A DNA stretch of 37,649 bases from Clostridia bacterium (GTDB taxonomy: Bacteria; Bacillota; Clostridia; Christensenellales; Aristaeellaceae). The stretch lies in the NCBI GenBank assembly GCA_017469265.1, contig JAFUGS010000077.1:1-37649 (forward strand), read 5' to 3'. This document shows positions 15,232 through 25,153 of the stretch, piece by piece. The position numbers and the translations under genes were made by a program. Each line of letters starts with the position of its first letter. Position 1 is the stretch's first letter. A model generated the notes under the pieces. It saw only the letters and a program-made list of their open reading frames with translations. It was not told the DNA's origin and did not search any database.

Positions 15232-16653
15232 TCAGGGTACCGTTTCCTCCCCCGCAGGGCGGAACACAAAATAATCTTTTACATTGTCAAAGCTCATGAT
15301 GGTTACGCACGCGCCTTCCACGTCAAAGCCGGAATAGGTGCGGCCGTGGCAGGTAACGGTGAAAGCAGCGTCCTCCCTGGGCACTCCCAGCACGCACAGG
15401 GAAACACCTCCGTCCGAGGGAAGCGCCTTGTTCAGCCTTCCGTCCTCCGACCGGGTCACCAGACAGTCAAACCGCTGATAGGCCAGCGGGTTTTCCCCGC
15501 TGTGAATCATCAGCGGATAATCCAGATAATCCGCCAGCCCGGGCAGCTGCTCCTCCGTATATCCGTAATCCCGCAGCGTGCCGATACAGATCATCGCGTG
15601 CCGGCCCGGATGATGCAGGGCCAGTACATCCCCTGCCCGCAGGGCGGCCGCCGCCTGGCGCCAGTCCGCCGGAAAGGGATTCTTCTCGCTGCAGAAAAGG
15701 TGATCCCCTGCCTGGCAGTGCGTTTTGCCGCCCAGGTCATTCAGGGATTCCGCCAGCGGCGTACCCGCCCGCTCCAGCGCGGTTTTGACAAAGCCCACGC
15801 AGTCCAGGCCGAAGACATAGACGCTGTCCTTCTCATAAAAATCGTGGGTGCCCTGCCACTGCTTCCGCGTCGTATAATCCGGCCAGCGCTCCAGCATGAT
15901 TTTCTGATCCTGCCCGCCCCAGAAATAGGGCACGCCCGCGGCAAAAAGCGGCGTCACCGGGTTTCCCGTGATTTTTCCGTACCGCGCGGCGATTGGATTT
16001 CCGGCTTCCAGCATGGAAAAGGCCTGCTCCAGCAAGGCGCTGGCGGATACGCTTCCCGTTTCCGTCCGCAGTCCGTCCCGCCACGCGTCCGCCTCCGCCC
16101 CGGTCAGCAGCCTGACGCAGCTTCGGGGGACATAGCCCAGCCGGCCCTCATCCCATACGGCGGCATAGTTTCCGTAAGCCGTAAACACATATACCCGCTG
16201 GCCGGGCCGCAGCTGCTCCTCCCGCTGCTCCTCCGGCAGGAACAGCAGGCCGTCCGTCTCCCCGATGACCGCCGCCGACATGACATTTTCCACCGGCAGG
16301 CGCGGCTTGCCGCTGGCTACATGAGGCAGCTTGAACATGGTGCCCGCCGTCAGATCCTTCGCGTTCAGAATGCGGACATACCCCTTGTTCACATAGCCCG
16401 TCCTGCCCGCTTCATCCGTCAGCAGATAGTACTGATCCACGTGCTGATCCGTCTGGTACAGCCGGTCCGTCTTCAAAGTCCAGACCACGTCCGCGTCCTC
16501 CGAGGGACTTTTCCGGGCGGGCGTCTCCTCCCCGGCGCAAAGCCAGGTGAGGAGAATCGTTTTAATCTGCGGCGCTTTCTTCGCGGCCAGCCCCGCTCCC
16601 GGCCAAAGCAGCGCCAGCGTCAAAACCAGCGCCAGGGTTTTCTTTCTTCCCAT
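15232..16653 (-). CDS. Secreted SH3 / NlpC-P60-like protein (paralogue 1)
   Basis: A 473-aa exported protein. A signal peptide (MGRKKTLALVLTLALLWPGAGLA) is followed by two SH3-like regions, at about residues 33-95 (ARKSPSEDADVVW, GYVNKGYVRIL) and 110-185 (RPGQRVYVFTAYGNYAAVW, GYVPRSCVRLL). From about 235 on is a papain-like core: GVPYFWGG, then FGLDCVGFV with the candidate nucleophile C285, HHPGRHAMICIG with H352, and LMIHSGENP with H384. That order fits NlpC/P60 cysteine peptidases or amidases acting on peptidoglycan. A second protein in the window (31869-33191) shares this core but not the SH3 domains. It is flanked by the ECF S-component gene, 114 bp upstream, and a terminator downstream. 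Confidence 0.75.
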   Translation of the reverse strand: MGRKKTLALVLTLALLWPGAGLAAKKAPQIKTILLTWLCAGEETPARKSPSEDADVVWTLKTDRLYQTDQHVDQYYLLTDEAGRTGYVNKGYVRILNAKDLTAGTMFKLPHVASGKPRLPVENVMSAAVIGETDGLLFLPEEQREEQLRPGQRVYVFTAYGNYAAVWDEGRLGYVPRSCVRLLTGAEADAWRDGLRTETGSVSASALLEQAFSMLEAGNPIAARYGKITGNPVTPLFAAGVPYFWGGQDQKIMLERWPDYTTRKQWQGTHDFYEKDSVYVFGLDCVGFVKTALERAGTPLAESLNDLGGKTHCQAGDHLFCSEKNPFPADWRQAAAALRAGDVLALHHPGRHAMICIGTLRDYGYTEEQLPGLADYLDYPLMIHSGENPLAYQRFDCLVTRSEDGRLNKALPSDGGVSLCVLGVPREDAAFTVTCHGRTYSGFDVEGACVTIMSFDNVKDYFVFRPAGEETVP

Positions 16654-16767: not shown

Positions 16768-17475
16768 CTATACGCCATATTTCAGCCGGATTCTCGCGAG
16801 CTTTTCCCCGAAGGGCCGGCCCAGCAGCAGCAGAAAAACCACGTTGCTGGCCGCGTAGCTGGCCATATATGGCAGCGCCGTGATCACTGCCGCCCGGTAC
16901 AGGGGCCAGTTGACGCCGCCGTTATACCAGAGCACCGTCCACACATCCATGAACAGGCTGTAGGCGACCCCGGCGAAAGCGCCGTACAGGATCAGCCACA
17001 CCCGGTTTTTCCGCAGGGGCCCGCTGAGAAAGCCCGCCATCAGGCCGATCATCCCCCAGGCAAACATCTGGAAAGGCGTCCAGGGCCCCTGGCCGGAAAA
17101 AAAGTTGGAGATCAGCGCGGAAAGGGAGCCTACGAGAAAGCCCGTTTCGCCGCCGATCCAGATGGCCGTAATCACCACAATGGCGGTGATAGGCTTAAAC
17201 CCGGGAATCGGCGCGAAAATCACGCGGCCCAGCACGCTCAGCGCCGTCATCACCGCCGCGATCACCATCCGGCGGGATCCGACGGTCCTTTTCTCAAAGC
17301 CGGTAAAGAACAGCACCTGGCTCAGCCCTACCATGCCCAGGATGCCCCAGGCGTAGAACCGTTCTCCCAGCCGCCAGCCGCCCAGCACCACCAGCAGCGG
17401 CATCAGCAGGAAGGGAATGCCGTACCGCAGCGCTGTTTTCCACCGGAAAGCGTTTTCCGTTCTTCGCGCTGTCAT
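16768..17475 (-). CDS. ECF transporter S component (substrate-binding subunit)
   Basis: A 235-aa membrane protein with about six helices. The segment GFLVGSLSALISNFFSGQGP, followed by WTPFQMFAWG, is typical of S components that work with EcfA/EcfT. S components bind the vitamin in the membrane and topple to release it inside the cell. The substrate is not certain from sequence. The neighbouring transcobalamin-like protein makes a corrinoid (CbrT-like role) the best guess. The ATG at 17475 has an AGGAGGGG site 6 nt upstream; a longer open frame upstream is out of line with this. It is the last gene of the operon HAD - transcobalamin-like - EcfT - EcfA - S, 62 bp after the ATPase gene. Confidence 0.87.
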   Translation of the reverse strand: MTARRTENAFRWKTALRYGIPFLLMPLLVVLGGWRLGERFYAWGILGMVGLSQVLFFTGFEKRTVGSRRMVIAAVMTALSVLGRVIFAPIPGFKPITAIVVITAIWIGGETGFLVGSLSALISNFFSGQGPWTPFQMFAWGMIGLMAGFLSGPLRKNRVWLILYGAFAGVAYSLFMDVWTVLWYNGGVNWPLYRAAVITALPYMASYAASNVVFLLLLGRPFGEKLARIRLKYGV

Positions 17476-17537
17476 GGCTTCCCCTCCTCTCTCAGCTCCC
17501 GCCGCTTTCCGGGGCATCCCGTGCCCCCGCGTCTGTC

Positions 17538-19226
17538 TTAATCCTGCCGCTTCAGCGCCGCCGTCATCTCCGCCACCGTGGCGCATCCGGGCAGCAGCCC
17601 TCTGGTCATCCGGCTTACGCTGGTTCCGTAATAACTTGCGCCGGCAAAGAAGGCTCCGGGCTCCTCCACCGCCTCCACCCGTCCCCGGAACAGCAGGCCG
17701 CACCGGTCCGCCGTTTCCGCCGCGAATTCCGCGTCATGGGTCACCAGCAGCAGCGTCATTCCCTGAGCCTGCAGCTGCTTCATCCAGGCCCGCGTCCGCT
17801 GCCGCCAGGCGGCGTCCAGCCCGCCGGTGGGTTCATCCATCAGCAGCAGCTTCGGCTTCGCGCTGAGCACCTTCGCCAGTCCCAGCAGCTGCTGCTCGCC
17901 CCCCGAAAGGTCATAGGGATGCCGGTCCAGAAGCCCGCTCAGGTCAAAAGGCAGCTCCTCCGGCCGAAGTCCGGCGTCCCGCAGTTCTTCCCGCACGCTG
18001 CCCCGCAGAAACAGCGTCTGCACATCCTGGGGCAGCAGGGCGATCCCCTCATGCCGTAGGGTTCCGTGGCGGTAATCCTTCAGTTTTTTGCCAAAGAAAA
18101 GGATTTCGCCGCTGTAAGGGGGAATCATTCCCGCCGCGGTTCGCAGCAGGGTCGTCTTTCCGCTGCCGTTTCCGCCCAGCAGAGCAAAGATCTCCCCCTG
18201 CCGCACCGTCAGATTCACGGAGCGCAGGACATCCTTTCCCTCCCGGGAAAAGCGGAACCATACCTCCCGGAGGCACAGGGCCGCGGAATCCTCCCGTTTC
18301 GGTTCCGCCCTTTGGGCCGCGCAGGACCGCGCCGGAAGCTTTCCCCGGTTCCGCGTCCCGGCGGCGGTTTGCCGCGTCTCCCCGTCCTCCGGCTTTGACG
18401 CGCCGGTCCGGGCAGCCAGCCACCGTCTGCCTTCTCCGGCGTTCAGCGGACAGCTTCCCTGTCCGCCCGTACCCTGCCAGACCCGTACCGCCGCGGGCAA
18501 AGCGCCGGCAAGGGCTCCCTGCCTGGGGATCCGGGCACACACCTCCCGGGGCGCGCCATTCAGCCGGATGGCACCGTTTTCCATGCAGATCAGCCGGTCC
18601 GCCCGGTCCAGCACATCCTCCAGCCGGTGCTCTGACATCAGAATCGTCATTCCCATCTCCCGGTGCAGCCGCTCCAGCATGGAGAGAAAGCTCCGGGCCG
18701 CGATGGGGTCCAGCCGGGCCGTGGGTTCATCCAGGATCAGCAGATCCGGTTCCATCACCATCACCGCCGCCAGGTTCAGCAGCTGTTTCTGCCCGCCGGA
18801 CAGCTGGTCCGGCCGGACATCCCAGTGCTCCTCCAGGCCGAAAAACTGGGCGGTTTCCGCCACACGGCGCCGCATCTCCTTTTCCGGCGTCCCCAGATTT
18901 TCCAGCCCGAAGGCCAGCTCATGCCACACCCGGTCCGTCACAATCTGCTGCTCCGGGCGCTGAAAAACAAACCCGATTTTTTCCGCCGCTTCCCGGTCCG
19001 ACAGGGACTCCGTCTCCCGGCCTCCCAGCAGAATGCTTCCCTGCCTGGCGCCCCGCGGCGCCAGCTCCCGCTTGATCAGCCGCAGCAGCGTGGTTTTCCC
19101 GCAGCCGGTTTCCCCGGTCAGCAGCGCGAATTCTCCCGCTTCCAGCCGCAGGCTGACCCCCCGCAGGGTCGGTTCCGCCGCGCCGGCGTACGTAAAGCTC
19201 AAATCCTTGACCGCAAGACTTTCCAT
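17538..19226 (-). CDS. Fused double EcfA ATPase of an ECF transporter
   Basis: A 562-aa protein with two ABC ATPase domains in tandem, so EcfA1 and EcfA2 are one chain. Domain 1: Walker A GETGCGKT (38-45), signature LSGGQ (142-146), Walker B LLILDE (162-167), switch H200. Domain 2: Walker A GGNGSGKT (351-358), signature LSGGE (440-444), Walker B LLLMDE (460-465), switch His in VTHD. The linker at about 245-315 is polar and low in structure. Both sites look active. The ATG at 19226 lies inside the end of the EcfT gene (28-bp overlap), which fits translational coupling; the much longer open frame upstream is the EcfT gene read in the wrong frame. Confidence 0.92.
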   Translation of the reverse strand: MESLAVKDLSFTYAGAAEPTLRGVSLRLEAGEFALLTGETGCGKTTLLRLIKRELAPRGARQGSILLGGRETESLSDREAAEKIGFVFQRPEQQIVTDRVWHELAFGLENLGTPEKEMRRRVAETAQFFGLEEHWDVRPDQLSGGQKQLLNLAAVMVMEPDLLILDEPTARLDPIAARSFLSMLERLHREMGMTILMSEHRLEDVLDRADRLICMENGAIRLNGAPREVCARIPRQGALAGALPAAVRVWQGTGGQGSCPLNAGEGRRWLAARTGASKPEDGETRQTAAGTRNRGKLPARSCAAQRAEPKREDSAALCLREVWFRFSREGKDVLRSVNLTVRQGEIFALLGGNGSGKTTLLRTAAGMIPPYSGEILFFGKKLKDYRHGTLRHEGIALLPQDVQTLFLRGSVREELRDAGLRPEELPFDLSGLLDRHPYDLSGGEQQLLGLAKVLSAKPKLLLMDEPTGGLDAAWRQRTRAWMKQLQAQGMTLLLVTHDAEFAAETADRCGLLFRGRVEAVEEPGAFFAGASYYGTSVSRMTRGLLPGCATVAEMTAALKRQD

Positions 19227-20077
19227 TTCCACCGATCCTTTATCTCCAGCGCCGCCGGCGTCAGGCAGAGCAGCCCGAAGGCGCCGTAGGCAGCGGCGCT
19301 TCCAAAGCCGGCCGCCGGCACGCGCAGCTCGGGATACCAGGTATAACCGATCTGCCCTGTCACCCGCGCCGCGGCGACAATCAGCATCAGCCCAAGGCTC
19401 AGCGCCGTCAGCGCCGTGTCTCCCCGCTCCCAGACATAAACCCGGTACCGGGTTCTGGACCCGCTGCCGTATCCCCGGGCCGTCATGCTGTCCGCCGTGG
19501 TGATCCCGTTCTCCAGGGCCCAGGTCACCATCCCGTCCATCACCCGCAGCCCGCCCCGCAGCCGGTCCAGTCCGTTCTCCTCCCGGATCAGGCCCAGACC
19601 GGCCTGCGCCTCCCGGACCTGAGCCGCCTGGCGCCGGAAGAGGGGCAGGTAACGCAGGCTCATGCTGAGAATCAGGGAGACCTTCGGGCTCAGCCGGCCG
19701 GTCACCGCCTGCAGCTTTTCCGTATCCATCACGTGGGAAAAGCACCTGGCCCATACCAGCGCCGCCGCGATCAGCATGCCCATCACCAGGCCGTACAGCA
19801 CCGCCTCCCGGGTCACGGGATTCCGGTTCAGAAAGAAGAGCACTGTCCGTCCGTTATGGTTGAACAGGGGGTTCAGCACCCCGCTGGCCAGCGCGACCGC
19901 CGGATACCAGCCAAGGCGCCGCCGGCCCCGCCCCTCCTCCAGGAGGAAGAGCAGCCCCATGCCGCTGACCAGGCCGATGCCCGCCGTCACCGGATTGACG
20001 CCGAAGATCACCGGCAGCAGCACGCAGGCGAACACCACGCACGCGCAGCCCGGATGCCGGTGCCGCAGGCTCATCAT
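19199..20077 (-). CDS. EcfT transmembrane subunit of an ECF transporter
   Basis: A 292-aa membrane protein with five or six helices. The key motif is the Ala-Arg-Gly coupling helix that sits in the ATPase groove, seen as SMTARGYGSG near residue 200. A first such motif is less clear. A long amphipathic region around residues 120-190 (SLRYLPLFRRQAAQVREAQA) is typical of EcfT. It joins the double ATPase to the S component. The gene starts 18 bp after the transcobalamin-like gene and overlaps the ATPase gene by 28 bp. The size and motifs fit the CbiQ/EcfT family; a dedicated rather than shared module is suggested by its own S gene. Confidence 0.88.
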   Translation of the reverse strand: MMSLRHRHPGCACVVFACVLLPVIFGVNPVTAGIGLVSGMGLLFLLEEGRGRRRLGWYPAVALASGVLNPLFNHNGRTVLFFLNRNPVTREAVLYGLVMGMLIAAALVWARCFSHVMDTEKLQAVTGRLSPKVSLILSMSLRYLPLFRRQAAQVREAQAGLGLIREENGLDRLRGGLRVMDGMVTWALENGITTADSMTARGYGSGSRTRYRVYVWERGDTALTALSLGLMLIVAAARVTGQIGYTWYPELRVPAAGFGSAAAYGAFGLLCLTPAALEIKDRWKWKVLRSRI

Positions 20078-20095
20078 GGGCTTTCCCTCCTTTGC

Positions 20096-21637
20096 TCAGG
20101 GTTCCTGGTCCTTGCCCAGGTTCCGGGTATAAATCCATTCCACCCGGTCTCCGGGCCGCAGGCGGTACTGGCTGCAGCCCACATCGGCGAATACGCCGTT
20201 CACCCGGTACATCCAGCCGGACAGGTTGCCGAACTGATACTCGTACAGATACCCGATCCCCCGGACGTACGCACCGGCGGTGGTCCCATCGTATTCCATC
20301 TGGATGCGGTGGGCCCGGGTCGCCTCCAGCAGCTGGTCAAAAGCCGTATCCCCCTCCGCCACGTACAGCGTCTCCTCCGCCAGCAGGATGCCATCCGCCG
20401 GCACATCCGCGTTTTCCCCGGCCACGGTGTCGCAGCGGATGGAAATGGTGGTTTCCACGTTCCGATCCCCGGAATCCTTTTCGTCGTTTCCGGCGTAATA
20501 TCCTTCCGGGCTCTGAATCTCCAGGACGGAAACCGCCGCCGCGGCCGCCAGGGCCAGCAGCAGCGGGAAGGCATAGCTTCGCCAGTTCCTCTTGCCCCGC
20601 CGCCAGGCCAGGATCCAGCTGGCCAGCAGCGCCAGTCCAATCCCCAGCCAGGCCCAGCCCCGGGCCGTCAACCCTTCCGGAAAGAAGCCCGCCCTCACGG
20701 GGGCTGCTTCCGGAAAGTCAAAAACGTAATAAGGTTCCCCGCCGTTCCGTGATCCCTGATACCCCACCAGCGCGTAAAAACACTGCACCGTGGCGGTTTC
20801 ATTCATTTTCCCGGTTTTCAGATCATGGGCGAAGCCTTCCCCCTCCAGGCGGAAGCGCATCATGGCGTCCATCACGCTGCCGCCGGGCCGGACAAAGGCC
20901 TCCTCCTTCGCGCCGTCCAGCCCCAGGTCGCTGAGGGCCAGCAGCACCTGGGCGCAGCTCTCCGCGCTTTCCATTCCCATGCCCAGGAATCCGCCGTTCT
21001 CCTGCTGGATGCCGGTCAAGGCCGTCATGCCCCGGTCGACCGCCGCCGCGACCGCGGCGGATTCCTCCCGAAGCGGGGCAAGCGCCTGCAGGGTCATGGC
21101 CGTGCAGTCCACATCGCAGTCCGTTCCGATCACGGCCCATCCGCCATCCGCCAGCTGCAGGTTCAGGATTTTCTCCGCCGTCTTCCGCCGGTTTTCCGGC
21201 TGTCCGGCCCCATTGTTCATCAGATGCAGTCCGAACACCAGAGGCATCAGGGTTTCCTCCTCCGCCCCCCGGTCCGCCACCGCATCAATGGCCGGGTTCC
21301 GGCTGCCCAGGGCCAGCAGCGTCAGGGCCATCCGCTCCCTTTTGGTAATGCCGGCGGTCTCCGCCGCCGCCAGCTTTTCCTCCAGGGCCCGCCGGGGCCT
21401 GGTATAATCCGCGGGAAGGCCCAGATGCCGCAGGGCGATCAGATACCATCCGCCCAGGCTGTCCGCCGTTTCCGTCAGGGCGCCGTCCACCCAGGCCTGC
21501 AGCGTTCCGCCCGCCTGCCGCTCCGCCAGCACCGCCTGGATGAGCGCTTCCGGGCTTTCCGCCCTGGCCGGCAGGCGGGCAGGCCACAGAAAAACGATTG
21601 CGAGCAGCGCAGCTGCCAGCCACCCGATTCTTTTCAT
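20096..21637 (-). CDS. Membrane-anchored transcobalamin-like protein (alpha/alpha toroid + DUF4430)
   Basis: A 513-aa exported protein with an unusual order. A signal sequence (residues 1-26) is followed by an alpha/alpha-toroid region of prenyltransferase/squalene-cyclase type (about 30-300) with repeat cores ADGGWAVIGTDCDVDCTAMT (162-181) and ENGGFLGMGMESAESCAQVL (213-232). Two membrane helices (about 327-345 and 356-374) enclose a short basic loop. The C-terminus (about 395-508) is a DUF4430/transcobalamin-C type domain with the telltale SGWMYRVNGVFADVGCSQY and PGDRVEWIY. In animal transcobalamin and intrinsic factor a toroid and a DUF4430-like lobe close around B12. By topology both lobes here should face outside. 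The ATG at 21637 uses an AGGAGA site. It lies 18 bp upstream of EcfT. Confidence 0.82.
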   Translation of the reverse strand: MKRIGWLAAALLAIVFLWPARLPARAESPEALIQAVLAERQAGGTLQAWVDGALTETADSLGGWYLIALRHLGLPADYTRPRRALEEKLAAAETAGITKRERMALTLLALGSRNPAIDAVADRGAEEETLMPLVFGLHLMNNGAGQPENRRKTAEKILNLQLADGGWAVIGTDCDVDCTAMTLQALAPLREESAAVAAAVDRGMTALTGIQQENGGFLGMGMESAESCAQVLLALSDLGLDGAKEEAFVRPGGSVMDAMMRFRLEGEGFAHDLKTGKMNETATVQCFYALVGYQGSRNGGEPYYVFDFPEAAPVRAGFFPEGLTARGWAWLGIGLALLASWILAWRRGKRNWRSYAFPLLLALAAAAAVSVLEIQSPEGYYAGNDEKDSGDRNVETTISIRCDTVAGENADVPADGILLAEETLYVAEGDTAFDQLLEATRAHRIQMEYDGTTAGAYVRGIGYLYEYQFGNLSGWMYRVNGVFADVGCSQYRLRPGDRVEWIYTRNLGKDQEP

Positions 21638-21670
21638 CCGTCTCCTCACCGCGTTTTCCCTCCGGCCGCC

Positions 21671-21704
21671 CGCTTCTTCCGCCGCGTTCCCGCCGGAAGA
21701 AGCG
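21671..21704 (-). other. 11-bp stem-loop between the HAD and transcobalamin-like genes
   Basis: CGCTTCTTCCG and CGGAAGAAGCG form a perfect 11-bp stem with a 12-nt loop. No T-tract follows on the minus strand, so it may be an intercistronic structure affecting stability or translation of the following gene rather than a terminator. Confidence 0.45.
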
Positions 21705-21739
21705 CCGCGCCGCCGTGGTCTTCCTTCACGCTTTCGCCC

Positions 21740-22516
21740 TTATGCCTCCAGCAGGCCCAGTGTCCGAAAGGCACAGGCCAGCCCGTCCGCGTCCACATCC
21801 GCCGTCACCAGATCCGCGGCCGCCTTCGCCGCCGGGGTGCCATTGCCCATGGCCACCCCCACGCCCGCGTATTCCAGCATTTCCACATCATTGTCCGCGT
21901 CGCCGAAGACAGCGGTTTCTTCCCGCCGCAGGTCAAAGCTGCGCAGCATTTCCTCGATCCCCCGGGCCTTGCCAACCTCCCGGCTGATAATGTCAAAGCC
22001 CGTCTCATACCAGGCAGACAGCCGGCATCCCGGCATCCCGGTCATGAGCTGTTCCGCCTCCGCCCGGGTGCTGTACAGCGCGGCGGCGTAGATTGGCTCG
22101 CCGTTATACGCCGCGGTCTGCGGCGGCGCGGAGGACACCGCGGCCATCATCCCGGCGGTCAGCGCGTCCACATAGTTGATGTATTCCTCATGCTCATGCA
22201 GCAGCAGCAGCGGATGCCTGCGCGCTTCAAAAGCCCTCACCAGCGCCGCCTGATCCGCCTCCGGAAGGGAAGAGCGGAAAACCGGCCGCCAGTCCCGATC
22301 ATAGCACAGGTGGCCCGTCAGCGTCACGTATCCGTCAAAAGGAAACGCGGGCAGGTTCAGCTTCTTCAGCGCCATCTGATGCCGCCCCGTGGCCAGAAAG
22401 ATCCGGATTCCCCCCTCCCGCAGCGCCTCCAGCGCCCGCAGCGCGGAAGGCGGAACCGCGTGCATCCCGTGAGAATACAGGGTGCCGTCCACATCCAGAA
22501 AAACTGCCTTGATCAT
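21740..22516 (-). CDS. Cof-type HAD-IIB phosphatase
   Basis: A 258-aa cytosolic hydrolase of the haloacid dehalogenase superfamily. Motif I is FLDVDGTLYSHG with the nucleophile D8 and acid/base D10. Motif II is in IFLATGR, and motifs III/IV are the Lys of REVGKARGIEEML and FGDADNDVEML. The large cap between residues 80 and 175 is the type IIB (Cof/YbjI) class. These enzymes dephosphorylate sugar phosphates, flavin or pyridoxal phosphates; the substrate cannot be read here. It is the first gene on the strand of the ECF operon, but a 103-bp gap with a stem-loop separates it from the transcobalamin-like gene, so cotranscription is probable rather than proven. Confidence 0.9.
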   Translation of the reverse strand: MIKAVFLDVDGTLYSHGMHAVPPSALRALEALREGGIRIFLATGRHQMALKKLNLPAFPFDGYVTLTGHLCYDRDWRPVFRSSLPEADQAALVRAFEARRHPLLLLHEHEEYINYVDALTAGMMAAVSSAPPQTAAYNGEPIYAAALYSTRAEAEQLMTGMPGCRLSAWYETGFDIISREVGKARGIEEMLRSFDLRREETAVFGDADNDVEMLEYAGVGVAMGNGTPAAKAAADLVTADVDADGLACAFRTLGLLEA

Positions 22517-22556
22517 GTTTCTTCCCTTTCCCCGCGAAAAAAGCTCTTTTTCCCTA

Positions 22557-22585
22557 TTGACAGTCCGTGTATGTCCTGCTATAAT
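22557..22585 (+). promoter_or_regulatory. Perfect consensus promoter for a small RNA
   Basis: TTGACA (22557-22562), a 17-bp spacer and TATAAT (22580-22585) match the housekeeping sigma consensus at all twelve positions. The start site should be near 22592. No protein gene follows on this strand. Confidence 0.85.
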
Positions 22586-22591
22586 GCAGCT

Positions 22592-22607
22592 GTTAGCCAG
22601 TGCTAAC
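22592..22607. promoter_or_regulatory. DtxR-like palindrome at the small-RNA start site
   Basis: GTTAGC-CAGT-GCTAAC is a 16-bp palindrome beginning 7 bp after the -10 box, where a bound repressor would block transcription. The TTAGC/GCTAA arms, followed by TAA, resemble sites of DtxR/IdeR-type metal repressors (consensus with TTAG...CTAA). The same sequence would make a 5' hairpin in the RNA, so the dyad may serve either role. Confidence 0.5.
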
Positions 22608-22712
22608 TAATTCGGCGGCAGGCCAGCTTCCTCACATATGTCCGCCGCCGGGCGTTCTCACAGGCCATACCCCTCCATTGGAACCAACCCCATTCTTCAA
22701 ACAAGGGAAACG

Positions 22713-22752
22713 CGCTCTCCCGGTCCGCATACCCGGGAGGGGCGTTTTTCTT
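22713..22752 (+). terminator. Intrinsic terminator of the small RNA
   Basis: GCTCTCCCGG (22714-22723) pairs with CCGGGAGGGGC (22733-22743) with one wobble and one bulge around a 9-nt loop. TTTTTCTT follows directly on the plus strand. Confidence 0.8.
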
Positions 22753-22760
22753 ATGACCTG

Positions 22761-22794
22761 AAAAAGCCCCGGAAGAAGCCTTCCGGGGTTTTTG
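22761..22794. terminator. Bidirectional terminator between the small RNA and the vor operon
   Basis: CCCCGGAA (22767-22774) and TTCCGGGG (22781-22788) form an 8-bp stem, with A5 before and T5 after. It can stop transcription from both sides: the minus-strand oxidoreductase operon, whose last stop is at 22796, and read-through from the small RNA. Confidence 0.85.
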
Positions 22795-22795
22795 T

Positions 22796-23332
22796 TCATT
22801 GTACCGCTTCCGCGCCTTTTTCCATGGCCTGGCGGTTGATGGGCAGCAGGTGTTCCTTCTTGGGCCCGAAGGTCGCCTTCAGCGCCTCCATGGCCGCGTC
22901 GATGGAAACAATGCCCGTCTTTTTCAGGATCGCCCCCAGCATCACCATGTTGGCGGTACGGCTGTTGCCCAGCTGCTCGGCAATCCCGTTGCAGTCCACG
23001 GGGATGGCCGTGATGTCCTCCCGGTCCGGGGTGATGTCGATCAGGGAGGAATTGTACAGCATGACGCCGCCCTTTTCCATGGCGGGGGTGAACTTCAGCA
23101 TGCTGGGCTTGTTCATGATCACCGCGAAGGGAATCTCCGTCACCAGAGGGGAGCCGATGGGCTCATCGGAAATAACGACGGCGCAGTTGGCTTCGCCGCC
23201 CCGCATCTCGGGGCCGTAAGAGGGCATCCAGGAAACATTCATGCCCTCGTGCATGGCGGCCTTGGCCAGCAGCTGGCCGATCAGCAGCACGCCCTGCCCG
23301 CCGAAACCGGCAATCAGGAATTGCGCTTCCAT
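22796..23332 (-). CDS. 2-oxoacid:ferredoxin oxidoreductase, gamma subunit
   Basis: A 178-aa subunit of the pyruvate/2-ketoisovalerate/2-oxoglutarate ferredoxin oxidoreductase family. The diagnostic start is LIAGFGGQGVLLIGQLLAKA, a Rossmann-like segment, followed by WMPSYGPEMRGGEANCAVVI, typical of the gamma domain. It assembles with the alpha, beta and ferredoxin-like delta subunits encoded just upstream. The complex oxidatively decarboxylates a branched or dicarboxylic 2-oxoacid to its acyl-CoA while reducing ferredoxin, or runs in reverse. The order delta-alpha-beta-gamma and the alpha-subunit sequence resemble proteins annotated VorDBAC. It starts 3 bp after the beta-subunit stop. Confidence 0.92.
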   Translation of the reverse strand: MEAQFLIAGFGGQGVLLIGQLLAKAAMHEGMNVSWMPSYGPEMRGGEANCAVVISDEPIGSPLVTEIPFAVIMNKPSMLKFTPAMEKGGVMLYNSSLIDITPDREDITAIPVDCNGIAEQLGNSRTANMVMLGAILKKTGIVSIDAAMEALKATFGPKKEHLLPINRQAMEKGAEAVQ

Positions 23333-23335
23333 GAA

Positions 23336-24073
<738 letters not shown>

Positions 24074-24076
24074 GCC

Positions 24077-25153
24077 TTACTCCCCCTCCTTTGCCAGGTT
24101 TTCCACCTGGGTCATGATCTCCCGTACGGTGGGCACAATGCCGCCGGTGCGGCCAAAGAAGTGAACCGGTTTCTTTCCTTCCACGGCCAGGCGCACGTCG
24201 TCCACCATCTGGCCCATGCTCATTTCCACCGTCAGGAAAGCCTTCGCGTGTTCCGCGGCCCGCGCGATGGGCTCGGCCGGGAACGGCCAGAGGGTAATCG
24301 GCCGGATCAGCCCCGCCCGGATGCCTTCCGCCCGCAGCTTCCGCATGGCGCTGCGCGCGATACGGGCCGTGGTGCCGTACGCCACGATGACATAGTCCGC
24401 GTCCTCGGTCATTTCCTCCTGCCAGCGGCACTCAGTCCGTTCCATCACGGCGTATTTCTCGTACAGATGGTTCACGTGCTTTTCCAGCACGGCGGGGTCA
24501 ATGTACAGGGAGTTGATGATCGCCCGCTCCCGGTCCGAGGAGGGCGTCCAGCCCGTCGCCGCCCAGGTTTTCTCCGGCAGGTCCGCCGGCTTCTGATAGT
24601 CCGGCATCTCCACCGGCTCCATCATCTGGCCGATGAGCCCGTCGCCCATGACCAGCACGGGGTTCCGGTACTTGTCCGCCAGGTCGAAAGCCAGCTGCGT
24701 TAGCTCCACCGCCTCCTGCACGGAGGACGGCGCCAGCACCAGCATGCGGTAGTCGCCATGGCCGCCGCCCCGGGTGGACTGATAATAGTCGCTCTGCGCC
24801 GGCTGAATGGAGCCCAGGCCGGGGCCGCCGCGAACCATGTTCACGATGACGCAGGGCAGCTCCGCGCCGACGATATAGCTGATCCCTTCCTGCTTCAGGG
24901 AAATGCCCGGAGAGGAGGACGAGGTCATGACCCGTCCGCCGGCGCCGGCCGCGCCGTAGACCATGTTAATGGCCGCGACTTCGCTCTCCGCCTGCAGGAA
25001 GCAGCCGCCTTCCACCTTTGGCAGCCGCTTGGACATGTATTCCGGAATCTGGTTCTGAGGGGTAATGGGGTAGCCAAAGAAGAACCGGCAGCCGGCCTGG
25101 ATGGCGGCCTCGGCGATGGCCTCATTCCCCTTCATGAGCATTTTCTGTCCCAT
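24077..25153 (-). CDS. vorB: 2-oxoacid:ferredoxin oxidoreductase, alpha subunit (VorB-like)
   Basis: A 358-aa alpha subunit. The opening KMLMKGNEAIAEAAIQAGCR, then FFGYPITPQNQIPEYMSKRL, and the later MVRGGPGLGSIQPAQSDYYQ match what I know as 3-methyl-2-oxobutanoate dehydrogenase subunit VorB in anaerobic Firmicutes. KorA of 2-oxoglutarate oxidoreductase is close, so the precise 2-oxoacid is not settled. The role is in amino-acid fermentation or in reductive synthesis of branched-chain 2-oxoacids, with ferredoxin as electron carrier in the cytosol. The gene lies 15 bp after the ferredoxin-like delta gene with a GGAGTG site and 3 bp before beta. Confidence 0.9.
   Translation of the reverse strand: MGQKMLMKGNEAIAEAAIQAGCRFFFGYPITPQNQIPEYMSKRLPKVEGGCFLQAESEVAAINMVYGAAGAGGRVMTSSSSPGISLKQEGISYIVGAELPCVIVNMVRGGPGLGSIQPAQSDYYQSTRGGGHGDYRMLVLAPSSVQEAVELTQLAFDLADKYRNPVLVMGDGLIGQMMEPVEMPDYQKPADLPEKTWAATGWTPSSDRERAIINSLYIDPAVLEKHVNHLYEKYAVMERTECRWQEEMTEDADYVIVAYGTTARIARSAMRKLRAEGIRAGLIRPITLWPFPAEPIARAAEHAKAFLTVEMSMGQMVDDVRLAVEGKKPVHFFGRTGGIVPTVREIMTQVENLAKEGE

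What the first reader, a model, noticed from the sequence alone, without database searches (positions are those of the whole stretch)
16768..21637. Bacterial transcobalamin-like anchored receptor encoded with its own ECF uptake system
One gene joins an alpha/alpha toroid (GGW and GGF repeat cores) to a DUF4430 domain, the two lobes that in animal transcobalamin and intrinsic factor clamp vitamin B12. A membrane hairpin lies between them, which would place both lobes on the outer face. EcfT, a fused EcfA1-EcfA2 and an S component follow with overlaps or short gaps. Inference: a surface-bound clamp that hands a corrinoid (or another vitamin) to an ECF importer. DUF4430/SLBB relation to transcobalamin is known from family work as I recall; the coupled cassette with a hairpin anchor is what seems under-described.
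Basis: partly seen in the sequence, partly recalled or inferred. Interest (0 to 1): 0.78.

Follow-up and report, generated by a model that had tools for sequence, protein, structure and literature searches.

The report
Membrane-anchored bacterial vitamin B12 clamp
A Clostridia-type genome carries a surface protein built like the animal vitamin B12 carriers, but pinned to the membrane by a hairpin and encoded with its own importer; related sets occur in many gut-bacterial genomes and about half of those examined sit behind a B12-sensing RNA switch, so it is very probably a B12-scavenging system, the core idea of which was published in 2007.

Summary
On the minus strand lie a 513-aa protein (signal segment, alpha/alpha toroid, two-helix membrane hairpin, DUF4430 lobe), EcfT, fused EcfA1-A2 and an S component. 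The predicted structure of the 513-aa protein has intrinsic factor, transcobalamin and haptocorrin as its 15 best PDB matches. The S component's nearest solved relative is CbrT, the cobalamin S component. Of 80 related loci examined, 69 hold all three ECF parts and 43 have a cobalamin riboswitch match, nearly all just upstream. The window's own cassette has none; the one riboswitch found in its genome precedes a second, secreted DUF4430 protein. In 17 of 20 loci inspected from other families the lobes sit on separate genes beside the same ECF genes; the hairpin protein looks like their fusion. A corrinoid clamp serving an ECF importer is thus well supported. The core idea (toroid plus SLBB domain, operons with CbiO/CbiQ, B12 scavenging) is in Burroughs et al. 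2007. The hairpin anchor, the CbrT-like partner and riboswitch control did not turn up in my literature searches. Binding and hand-over remain inferred.

The parts
20096..21637 (-). Clamp protein, 513 aa: N-terminal hydrophobic signal segment (~1-25), alpha/alpha toroid (~30-310), membrane hairpin (~325-372, positive loop), DUF4430/SLBB beta-grasp lobe (~390-513)
20522..20665 (-). Membrane hairpin of the clamp (residues ~325-372)
   Evidence: hydropathy; helices 325-346 and 353-370 in the model
20126..20353 (-). DUF4430 (PF14478) match in the clamp
19199..20077 (-). EcfT, 292 aa (CbiQ family, weak)
   Evidence: PF02361 E 1.5e-5, 25.2 bits against cut-off 25; beside the clamp in related loci
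17538..19226 (-). Fused EcfA1-EcfA2 ATPase, 562 aa
   Evidence: two ABC_tran stretches; best NCBIfam models are ECF ATPase 1 and 2, both under their cut-offs (308.2 of 315, 302.7 of 330)
16768..17475 (-). S component, 235 aa; closest solved relative CbrT (6FNP chain A); about 60 extra N-terminal residues with two hydrophobic segments

Best explanation
This is a corrinoid (vitamin B12-type) scavenging system. The clamp protein is exported; its toroid and DUF4430 lobes both stand on the outer face because the two helices between them dip into the membrane and return. The two lobes close on a corrinoid as in transcobalamin and intrinsic factor. The captured corrinoid is passed to the neighbouring CbrT-like S component, which, with EcfT and the fused EcfA1-A2 ATPase, carries it into the cell. 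Shown by computation: gene order and its conservation, fold match, kinship of the S component, riboswitch matches at many relatives, hairpin with positive loop, split-gene forms elsewhere. Inferred: that the ligand is a corrinoid, which corrinoid it is, that both lobes bind it together, and that hand-over is direct. The stated confidence is for corrinoid scavenging by clamp and importer together; the first rival disputes only the hand-over step and overlaps with it.
For: Fold: AlphaFold2 model (18-row alignment, mean pLDDT 82.6, pTM 0.59); Foldseek ranks 1-15 of 828 matches are intrinsic factor, transcobalamin and haptocorrin, E 3.0e-9 to 6.1e-7; the isolated beta domain of human transcobalamin matches with TM 0.71 by target length. 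S component nearest to CbrT, which transports cobalamin and cobinamide (PMC5997447, abstract and passages). Context: 80 loci kept of 419 matching stretches in genome contigs; gene order partner-clamp-EcfT-EcfA-S in 56 of 80, all of T, A and S in 69 of 80, and 8 of the other 11 end at a contig edge. Cobalamin riboswitch: 9 of 19 family loci at Rfam's gathering score; 41 of 80 loci with a covariance model at E <= 1e-3 plus AdoCbl-II in 2, 42 of these 43 within 1.5 kb upstream of the first cassette gene; reversed-sequence control of the nhmmer profile gave 0 hits. Own genome: the one RF00174 match found lies 84 nt before a 150-aa DUF4430 protein with a signal-like start; the same pairing is seen in the same-genus genome G149. 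Corrin-ring marker CbiC not found in the own genome, nor in 10 of 20 carriers, own included. Lobe cooperation: in 17 of 20 inspected loci from other families a DUF4430 gene and a toroid gene stand beside the same ECF genes.
Against: No binding or transport data. No cobalamin riboswitch found at the window cassette, and 32 of the 70 loci with at least 1.5 kb upstream gave none at the expected place. Twelve of the 41 model matches are weak (E 1e-6 to 1e-3, and these E-values are rough): of the 7 of those that Rfam also scanned, 5 reached its cut-off and 2 (L080, L127) did not. The relative position of the lobes in the model is uncertain (pTM 0.59; whole-chain TM 0.36-0.54). Nine same-genus genomes without the clamp have B12-binding proteins, so the system is not needed for B12 use in that genus. 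Ten of 20 carriers have CbiC. By sequence profile the toroid is closest to squalene-cyclase-type toroids and transcobalamin does not appear. Ligand-contact residues of transcobalamin were not compared.
Confidence: 0.78

Rival explanations
1. The clamp binds corrinoids at the surface but does not hand them to the S component: it stores, protects or senses them, while CbrT-like uptake runs independently as in Lactobacillus.
For: CbrT of L. delbrueckii works in the ECF complex, and the passages seen mention no surface clamp (PMC5997447); three loci with room to spare, L074, L100 and L130, have a clamp without ECF genes near it.
Against: Tight linkage to EcfT-EcfA-S (69 of 80) and, in other families, the DUF4430 gene directly before EcfT in 16 of 20 inspected loci.
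Confidence: 0.2
2. The cassette takes up another large ligand (for example another tetrapyrrole) with a transcobalamin-like clamp.
For: Lobe folds alone do not fix the ligand; Burroughs et al. 2007 note that SLBB proteins of archaea may scavenge a distinct metabolite (passage); NCBIfam's best, far sub-cut-off S-family match is the folate family (22.2 bits, cut-off 60).
Against: Cobalamin or AdoCbl-II riboswitch matches in 43 of 80 loci and upstream of 12 of 20 inspected loci of other families; CbrT is the best solved relative of the S component.
Confidence: 0.08
3. It is a cobalt importer (CbiMNQO type) with an accessory protein, since EcfT resembles CbiQ.
For: EcfT's only Pfam match is CbiQ; cobalt importers are often under cobalamin riboswitches (recalled).
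Against: The S component matches ECF_trnsprt and riboflavin-type S families; no CbiM or CbiN is among the matches shown for the four proteins; a clamp of transcobalamin fold has no obvious use for a metal ion.
Confidence: 0.04
4. The toroid is an enzyme of the terpene-cyclase or prenyltransferase kind, and the DUF4430 link is incidental.
For: Sequence profiles of the toroid hit squalene-hopene cyclase and drimenyl diphosphate synthase best (E about 1e-11). A D-x-D-D-T string occurs somewhere in 3 of 98 clamps (L063, L069, L091).
Against: Fold search ranks 15 corrinoid carriers above every cyclase.
Confidence: 0.02

Closest known systems
Transcobalamin, intrinsic factor and haptocorrin of animals
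   Same: Alpha/alpha toroid followed by a DUF4430 beta-grasp lobe; best fold matches over both lobes
   Different: Bacterial; a two-helix membrane hairpin instead of a soluble linker; encoded with an ECF importer; profiles of the bacterial lobes do not find transcobalamin by sequence
[quoted passage not shown] 2007, PMC1796856)
   Same: Secreted bacterial toroid plus SLBB proteins in predicted operons with CbiO and CbiQ genes, often with a second SLBB protein; proposed to scavenge B12 (passages)
   Different: The passages seen name the Gram-positive cell-wall anchor motif, not a hairpin between the lobes, a CbrT-like S component or riboswitch control
ECF-CbrT of Lactobacillus delbrueckii (Santos et al. 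2018, PMC5997447)
   Same: S component is the nearest solved relative of the window's; ECF-driven cobalamin and cobinamide uptake
   Different: There CbrT shares one ECF module with other S components and lies in nrdJ-cbrS-cbrT-pduO (passages); here a module encoded with the S component, an extracellular clamp and two extra N-terminal hydrophobic segments on the S component
Split toroid / DUF4430 operons of other Bacillota (seen here)
   Same: Same two lobes next to EcfT-EcfA-S in 17 of 20 inspected loci; cobalamin riboswitch match upstream in 12 of 20
   Different: A DUF4430 gene apart from the toroid gene, each with its own tether: S-layer homology domains on 3 of 4 toroids scanned, an N-terminal hydrophobic segment on the DUF4430 proteins
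BtuG / BtuH surface proteins of Bacteroidetes
   Same: Extra B12-binding proteins beside B12 transport systems (BtuH seen in a search listing with the start of its abstract only; BtuG recalled)
   Different: Unrelated folds and outer-membrane TonB systems (recalled)

Membership tests
Transcobalamin-like clade of SLBB (DUF4430, PF14478) | DUF4430 match over the curated cut-off | tested here: met
   59.5 bits against 23.8
Transcobalamin / intrinsic factor fold | Toroid and beta-grasp lobe in one chain with that fold | tested here: met
   Foldseek ranks 1-15; whole-chain TM 0.36-0.43 by query and 0.44-0.54 by target, so lobe placement is not established
Transcobalamin / intrinsic factor fold | Binds cobalamin between the lobes | not testable with these tools
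   needs a binding assay or structure
Transcobalamin / intrinsic factor fold | Conservation of ligand-contact residues | not tested
   no residue-level alignment to a carrier was obtained
ECF transporter with its own module | T, A and S components encoded together | tested here: met
   69 of 80 related loci
CbrT-type S component | Closest to CbrT among S components | tested here: met
   among solved structures only: E 3.5e-13 against 0.0024 for the next; profile 8.6e-15 against 0.0023
CbrT-type S component | Transports cobalamin and cobinamide | not testable with these tools
   needs a transport assay
CbiMNQO cobalt importer | CbiM-type S component | tested here: not met
   S component matches PF12822 and PF07155; no CbiM among its matches to E 1
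Class II terpene cyclase | Asp-x-Asp-Asp catalytic motif (recalled) at the toroid site | tested here: not met
   0 of 84 clamps read by the pattern have the fourth Asp; 14 of 98 not read by it; the string D-x-D-D-T occurs somewhere in 3 of 98
Cobalamin-riboswitch regulon | Riboswitch upstream of the window cassette | tested here: not met
   none found in the window; the genome's one RF00174 match found precedes another DUF4430 gene

The most novel reading that the evidence does not exclude
An ECF importer that depends on an extracellular, membrane-pinned two-lobe capture protein: a transcobalamin whose lobes are joined through a membrane hairpin so that the closed clamp sits over the S component and passes it the corrinoid directly, fed in turn by a second surface protein with a transcobalamin-beta-like domain. 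ECF transporters are usually described as doing without an outer binding protein (recalled), so this would be a new working mode for them and would give the animal B12 carriers a working analogue in gut bacteria.
Probability: 0.5. Interest if true: 0.75.

Novelty: new variant of a known kind. Interest (0 to 1): 0.6.

Why it matters
B12 uptake in many gut bacteria is still unassigned: Rodionov et al. 2019 (PMC6593275, passages) find known B12 transporter families in nearly half of the auxotrophic variants and call the identification of the rest an open problem. A clamp plus CbrT-like ECF cassette, often behind a cobalamin riboswitch and with 419 matching stretches in a collection of 84,980 species' genomes, offers a marker and a testable mechanism. 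It also bears on the proposal that animals obtained their B12 carriers from such bacteria (Burroughs et al. 2007, passage), and on whether ECF importers can use outer capture proteins.

Tried and rejected
Riboswitch at the window cassette: none at Rfam gathering score, with the covariance model R1 or in a lax scan of 21600-22900 (seven matches, all far under their families' cut-offs, none cobalamin). R1 does not find the own genome's riboswitch on contig C17, which Rfam places over its cut-off (37.7 bits against 31.5), so that one is divergent and less certain; one search scored 150 of 275 candidates, so further copies are not excluded.

Transcobalamin by sequence: no transcobalamin among hits for the full clamp, the beta lobe or the toroid. 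Upstream partner against the clamp's beta lobe by profile: E 0.0038 but probability only 8.7%, inconclusive; no DUF4430 appears among the 25 Pfam families listed for the 24 partners scanned; its predicted structure (pLDDT 90.4) has transcobalamin's beta domain only at rank 24 (E 1.4e-3, TM 0.56 by target), behind phage capsid, Ig-type and other hits. I therefore call it only transcobalamin-beta-like.

Tree of the fused ATPase (58 rows: 39 from loci with hairpin clamps, the window and about half of the usable loci of the 80; 19 from loci with other arrangements): 37 of 39 hairpin rows lie on one side with one split row, but that split has weak support (71/77) and at least 3 label changes are forced, so a single origin is not shown.

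L092's match lies inside the over-long reading frame called for its partner gene and is the one of 43 not counted as upstream. In one search five of 80 loop charges were not positive: four because the two hydropathy windows overlapped, one because an earlier segment was picked. Second-look structural alignment (pdb_via) was not available.
Full report
What is there. The clamp protein has an N-terminal hydrophobic segment, a toroid, two hydrophobic segments at 328-344 and 356-372 and a DUF4430 domain. It is one of two DUF4430 matches found in its genome at E <= 0.001, a 2.57-Mb draft in 103 contigs, 91.75% complete.

Conservation. In the window's family, 20 of 200 genomes searched have a match, own included; 18 carry the full-length form, G020 has the lobes on two genes, and G170 has a 2,009-aa toroid protein with an inner DUF4430 plus a separate DUF4430 gene. 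The 18 full-length proteins share 47% mean column identity, with invariant residues in both lobes. A scan of genome contigs (84,980 species) found 419 matching stretches, of which the 80 best were kept; their titles name uncultured or metagenome-assembled Clostridia, Oscillospiraceae, Lachnospiraceae and the like, many from ruminant guts. All 80 have at least two hydrophobic segments between the lobes, and the loop between the first two is net positive in 75 of 80, which by the positive-inside rule (established knowledge) puts both lobes outside.

Structure. The model from the 18-row alignment has mean pLDDT 82.6 and pTM 0.59. Its 15 best PDB matches of 828 are intrinsic factor, transcobalamin and haptocorrin, aligned across both lobes (503-542 columns), ahead of glycoside hydrolases, squalene cyclases and prenyltransferases. 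Whole-chain TM of 0.36-0.54 and rmsd of 8.6 to 14 angstrom say that the lobes match better than their placement.

The importer. EcfT and the fused ATPase are ordinary ECF parts. The S component finds CbrT (6FNP) at E 3.5e-13, the next solved S component at 0.0024; with a 17-row profile 8.6e-15 and 0.0023. CbrT binds cobalamin and cobinamide at nanomolar affinity and transports both (Santos et al. 2018, PMC5997447, passages). The window's S component has about 60 more N-terminal residues with two hydrophobic segments, conserved in the 17 aligned.

Corrinoid link. Rfam finds a cobalamin riboswitch at gathering score in 9 of 19 family loci, within their 1.5-kb flanks, upstream and on the gene's strand. 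Among the 80 further loci a covariance model built from 17 riboswitches matches 41 at E <= 1e-3; Rfam adds AdoCbl-II riboswitches in L064 and L112, giving 43 of 80. Of the 43, 42 lie within 1.5 kb upstream of the first cassette gene, and 38 of the 70 loci with at least 1.5 kb upstream have one within 2.5 kb. Sixteen of the 41 are training loci or the same contigs as such (see Tried and rejected). Rfam itself was run on 32 of the 80 (10 + 10 + 12) and found RF00174 in 9 and RF01689 in 2; two weak model matches, L080 and L127, did not reach its cut-off. Whole-genome scans of 19 carriers show 1 to 6 RF00174 matches per genome in 18 and none in one, so the placement is not chance. In the own genome the one match found (C17:18510-18705) lies 84 nt before a 150-aa protein with a signal-like start and a DUF4430 domain (33.9 bits), and the same pair occurs in G149. 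All 20 carriers and none of 9 same-genus non-carriers have a DUF4430 match.

A fifth part. In 73 of 80 loci a gene for a protein with a signal-like start lies directly before the clamp gene, where a riboswitch is found usually between it and the clamp. Pfam does not name its first domain; carboxypeptidase-regulatory-like matches at E <= 0.1 cover 16 of 24 members scanned. Its confident model has transcobalamin's beta domain among its matches, weakly. Some copies end in a hydrophobic tail or show a lipobox by eye. The window's near relatives L053-L056 lack it at this place; the C17 DUF4430 protein may take its role (inference).

Where the hairpin comes from. Across the phylum, 61 of 398 genomes match at E <= 1e-15, own included. 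I inspected 20 loci, one each from 20 genomes of other families with strong matches: 17 have a DUF4430 gene and a toroid gene beside EcfT and ATPase genes, in 16 with the DUF4430 gene directly before EcfT; in three of the 17 (L178, L179, L181) the toroid protein also holds DUF4430-like domains. L164 and L169 show no ECF genes and L166 ends at a contig edge. By hydropathy none of the 20 has the window's hairpin fusion. A cobalamin-riboswitch match lies upstream of the cassette in 12 of these 20; one of the 12, L167, is weak, cut by the contig end and not over Rfam's cut-off. Rfam was run on 9 of the 20. Three of four split toroids scanned carry S-layer homology domains; the fourth ends in a hydrophobic segment. 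So the split lobes have their own tethers, and the window's form joins both lobes and replaces the tethers by one hairpin (inference). Lobes found apart beside one importer and fused elsewhere are a classical sign that they work together.

Need for B12. CbiC, a corrin-ring marker, was not found in the own genome; 10 of 20 carriers lack it and 10 have it. The own genome has a B12-binding domain in a frame cut by the end of the fetched stretch, probably the end of a methionine synthase, judging from frames of about 800 aa in its relatives (inference). A B12-binding match was found in 17 of 20 carriers and 9 of 9 same-genus non-carriers, so non-carriers presumably have other uptake routes; BtuFCD was not searched for.

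What is known. Burroughs et al. 2007 describe toroid-SLBB fusions, operons with CbiO and CbiQ and often a second SLBB protein, and propose B12 scavenging (PMC1796856, abstract and passages). The B12 ECF transporter CbrT and the label CbrUVT are in use (listings and passages). Nine searches of the open-access library (DUF4430 with and without ECF transporter; CbrT with cobalamin and ECF; transcobalamin-like with bacteria and transporter; CbrTUV and variants; transcobalamin with energy-coupling factor; SLBB with cobalamin and Clostridia; a six-term mix; S-component with cobalamin riboswitch) returned no paper that, from the listings and passages seen, describes the hairpin clamp or its riboswitch-linked cassette. 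Rodionov et al. 2009 is not held, and most subscription papers are outside the library, so this is no proof of absence.

Verdict. Observation confirmed, interpretation well supported, core idea in print since 2007, the fused and anchored form and its regulation apparently not. New variant of a known kind.

Noticed in passing
L082, L114, L122, L129 (second match at about 9.6-9.8 kb): A second cobalamin-riboswitch match lies between the clamp gene and EcfT, and in the ATPase tree the two of these loci that were included (L082, L129) group with split-lobe systems, as if a clamp unit had been joined to a different B12 ECF module.
   Followed up: partly
L042 (G170) and L178, L179, L181: Very large proteins (about 1,200-2,000 aa) that combine toroid and DUF4430 domains beside ECF genes.
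   Followed up: no
L043 (G020), L167, L168, L171 and others: The S component is fused to the C-terminus of EcfA1-A2 in one chain of about 800-940 aa.
   Followed up: no
L053-L132, gene next to the clamp: A partner family with a transcobalamin-beta-like first domain that Pfam does not name.
   Followed up: partly
L132:642-1409 and 1449-2246: Two tandem copies of the partner gene before the clamp.
   Followed up: no
window 21740-22516 (-): HAD-type hydrolase (PF08282) 102 bp upstream of the clamp; no sign that it belongs to the cassette, but its conservation was not examined closely.
   Followed up: no
window 22796-25153 (-): Three genes of a pyruvate/2-oxoacid:ferredoxin oxidoreductase type (POR, TPP_enzyme_C, POR_N) upstream; by eye, related frames also precede the clamp in the same-genus locus L025.
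   Followed up: no
window 15232-16653 (-): 473-aa protein with a signal-like start downstream of the S component, with only a sub-cut-off SH3 match; by eye it looks like an NlpC/P60-type wall protein.
   Followed up: no
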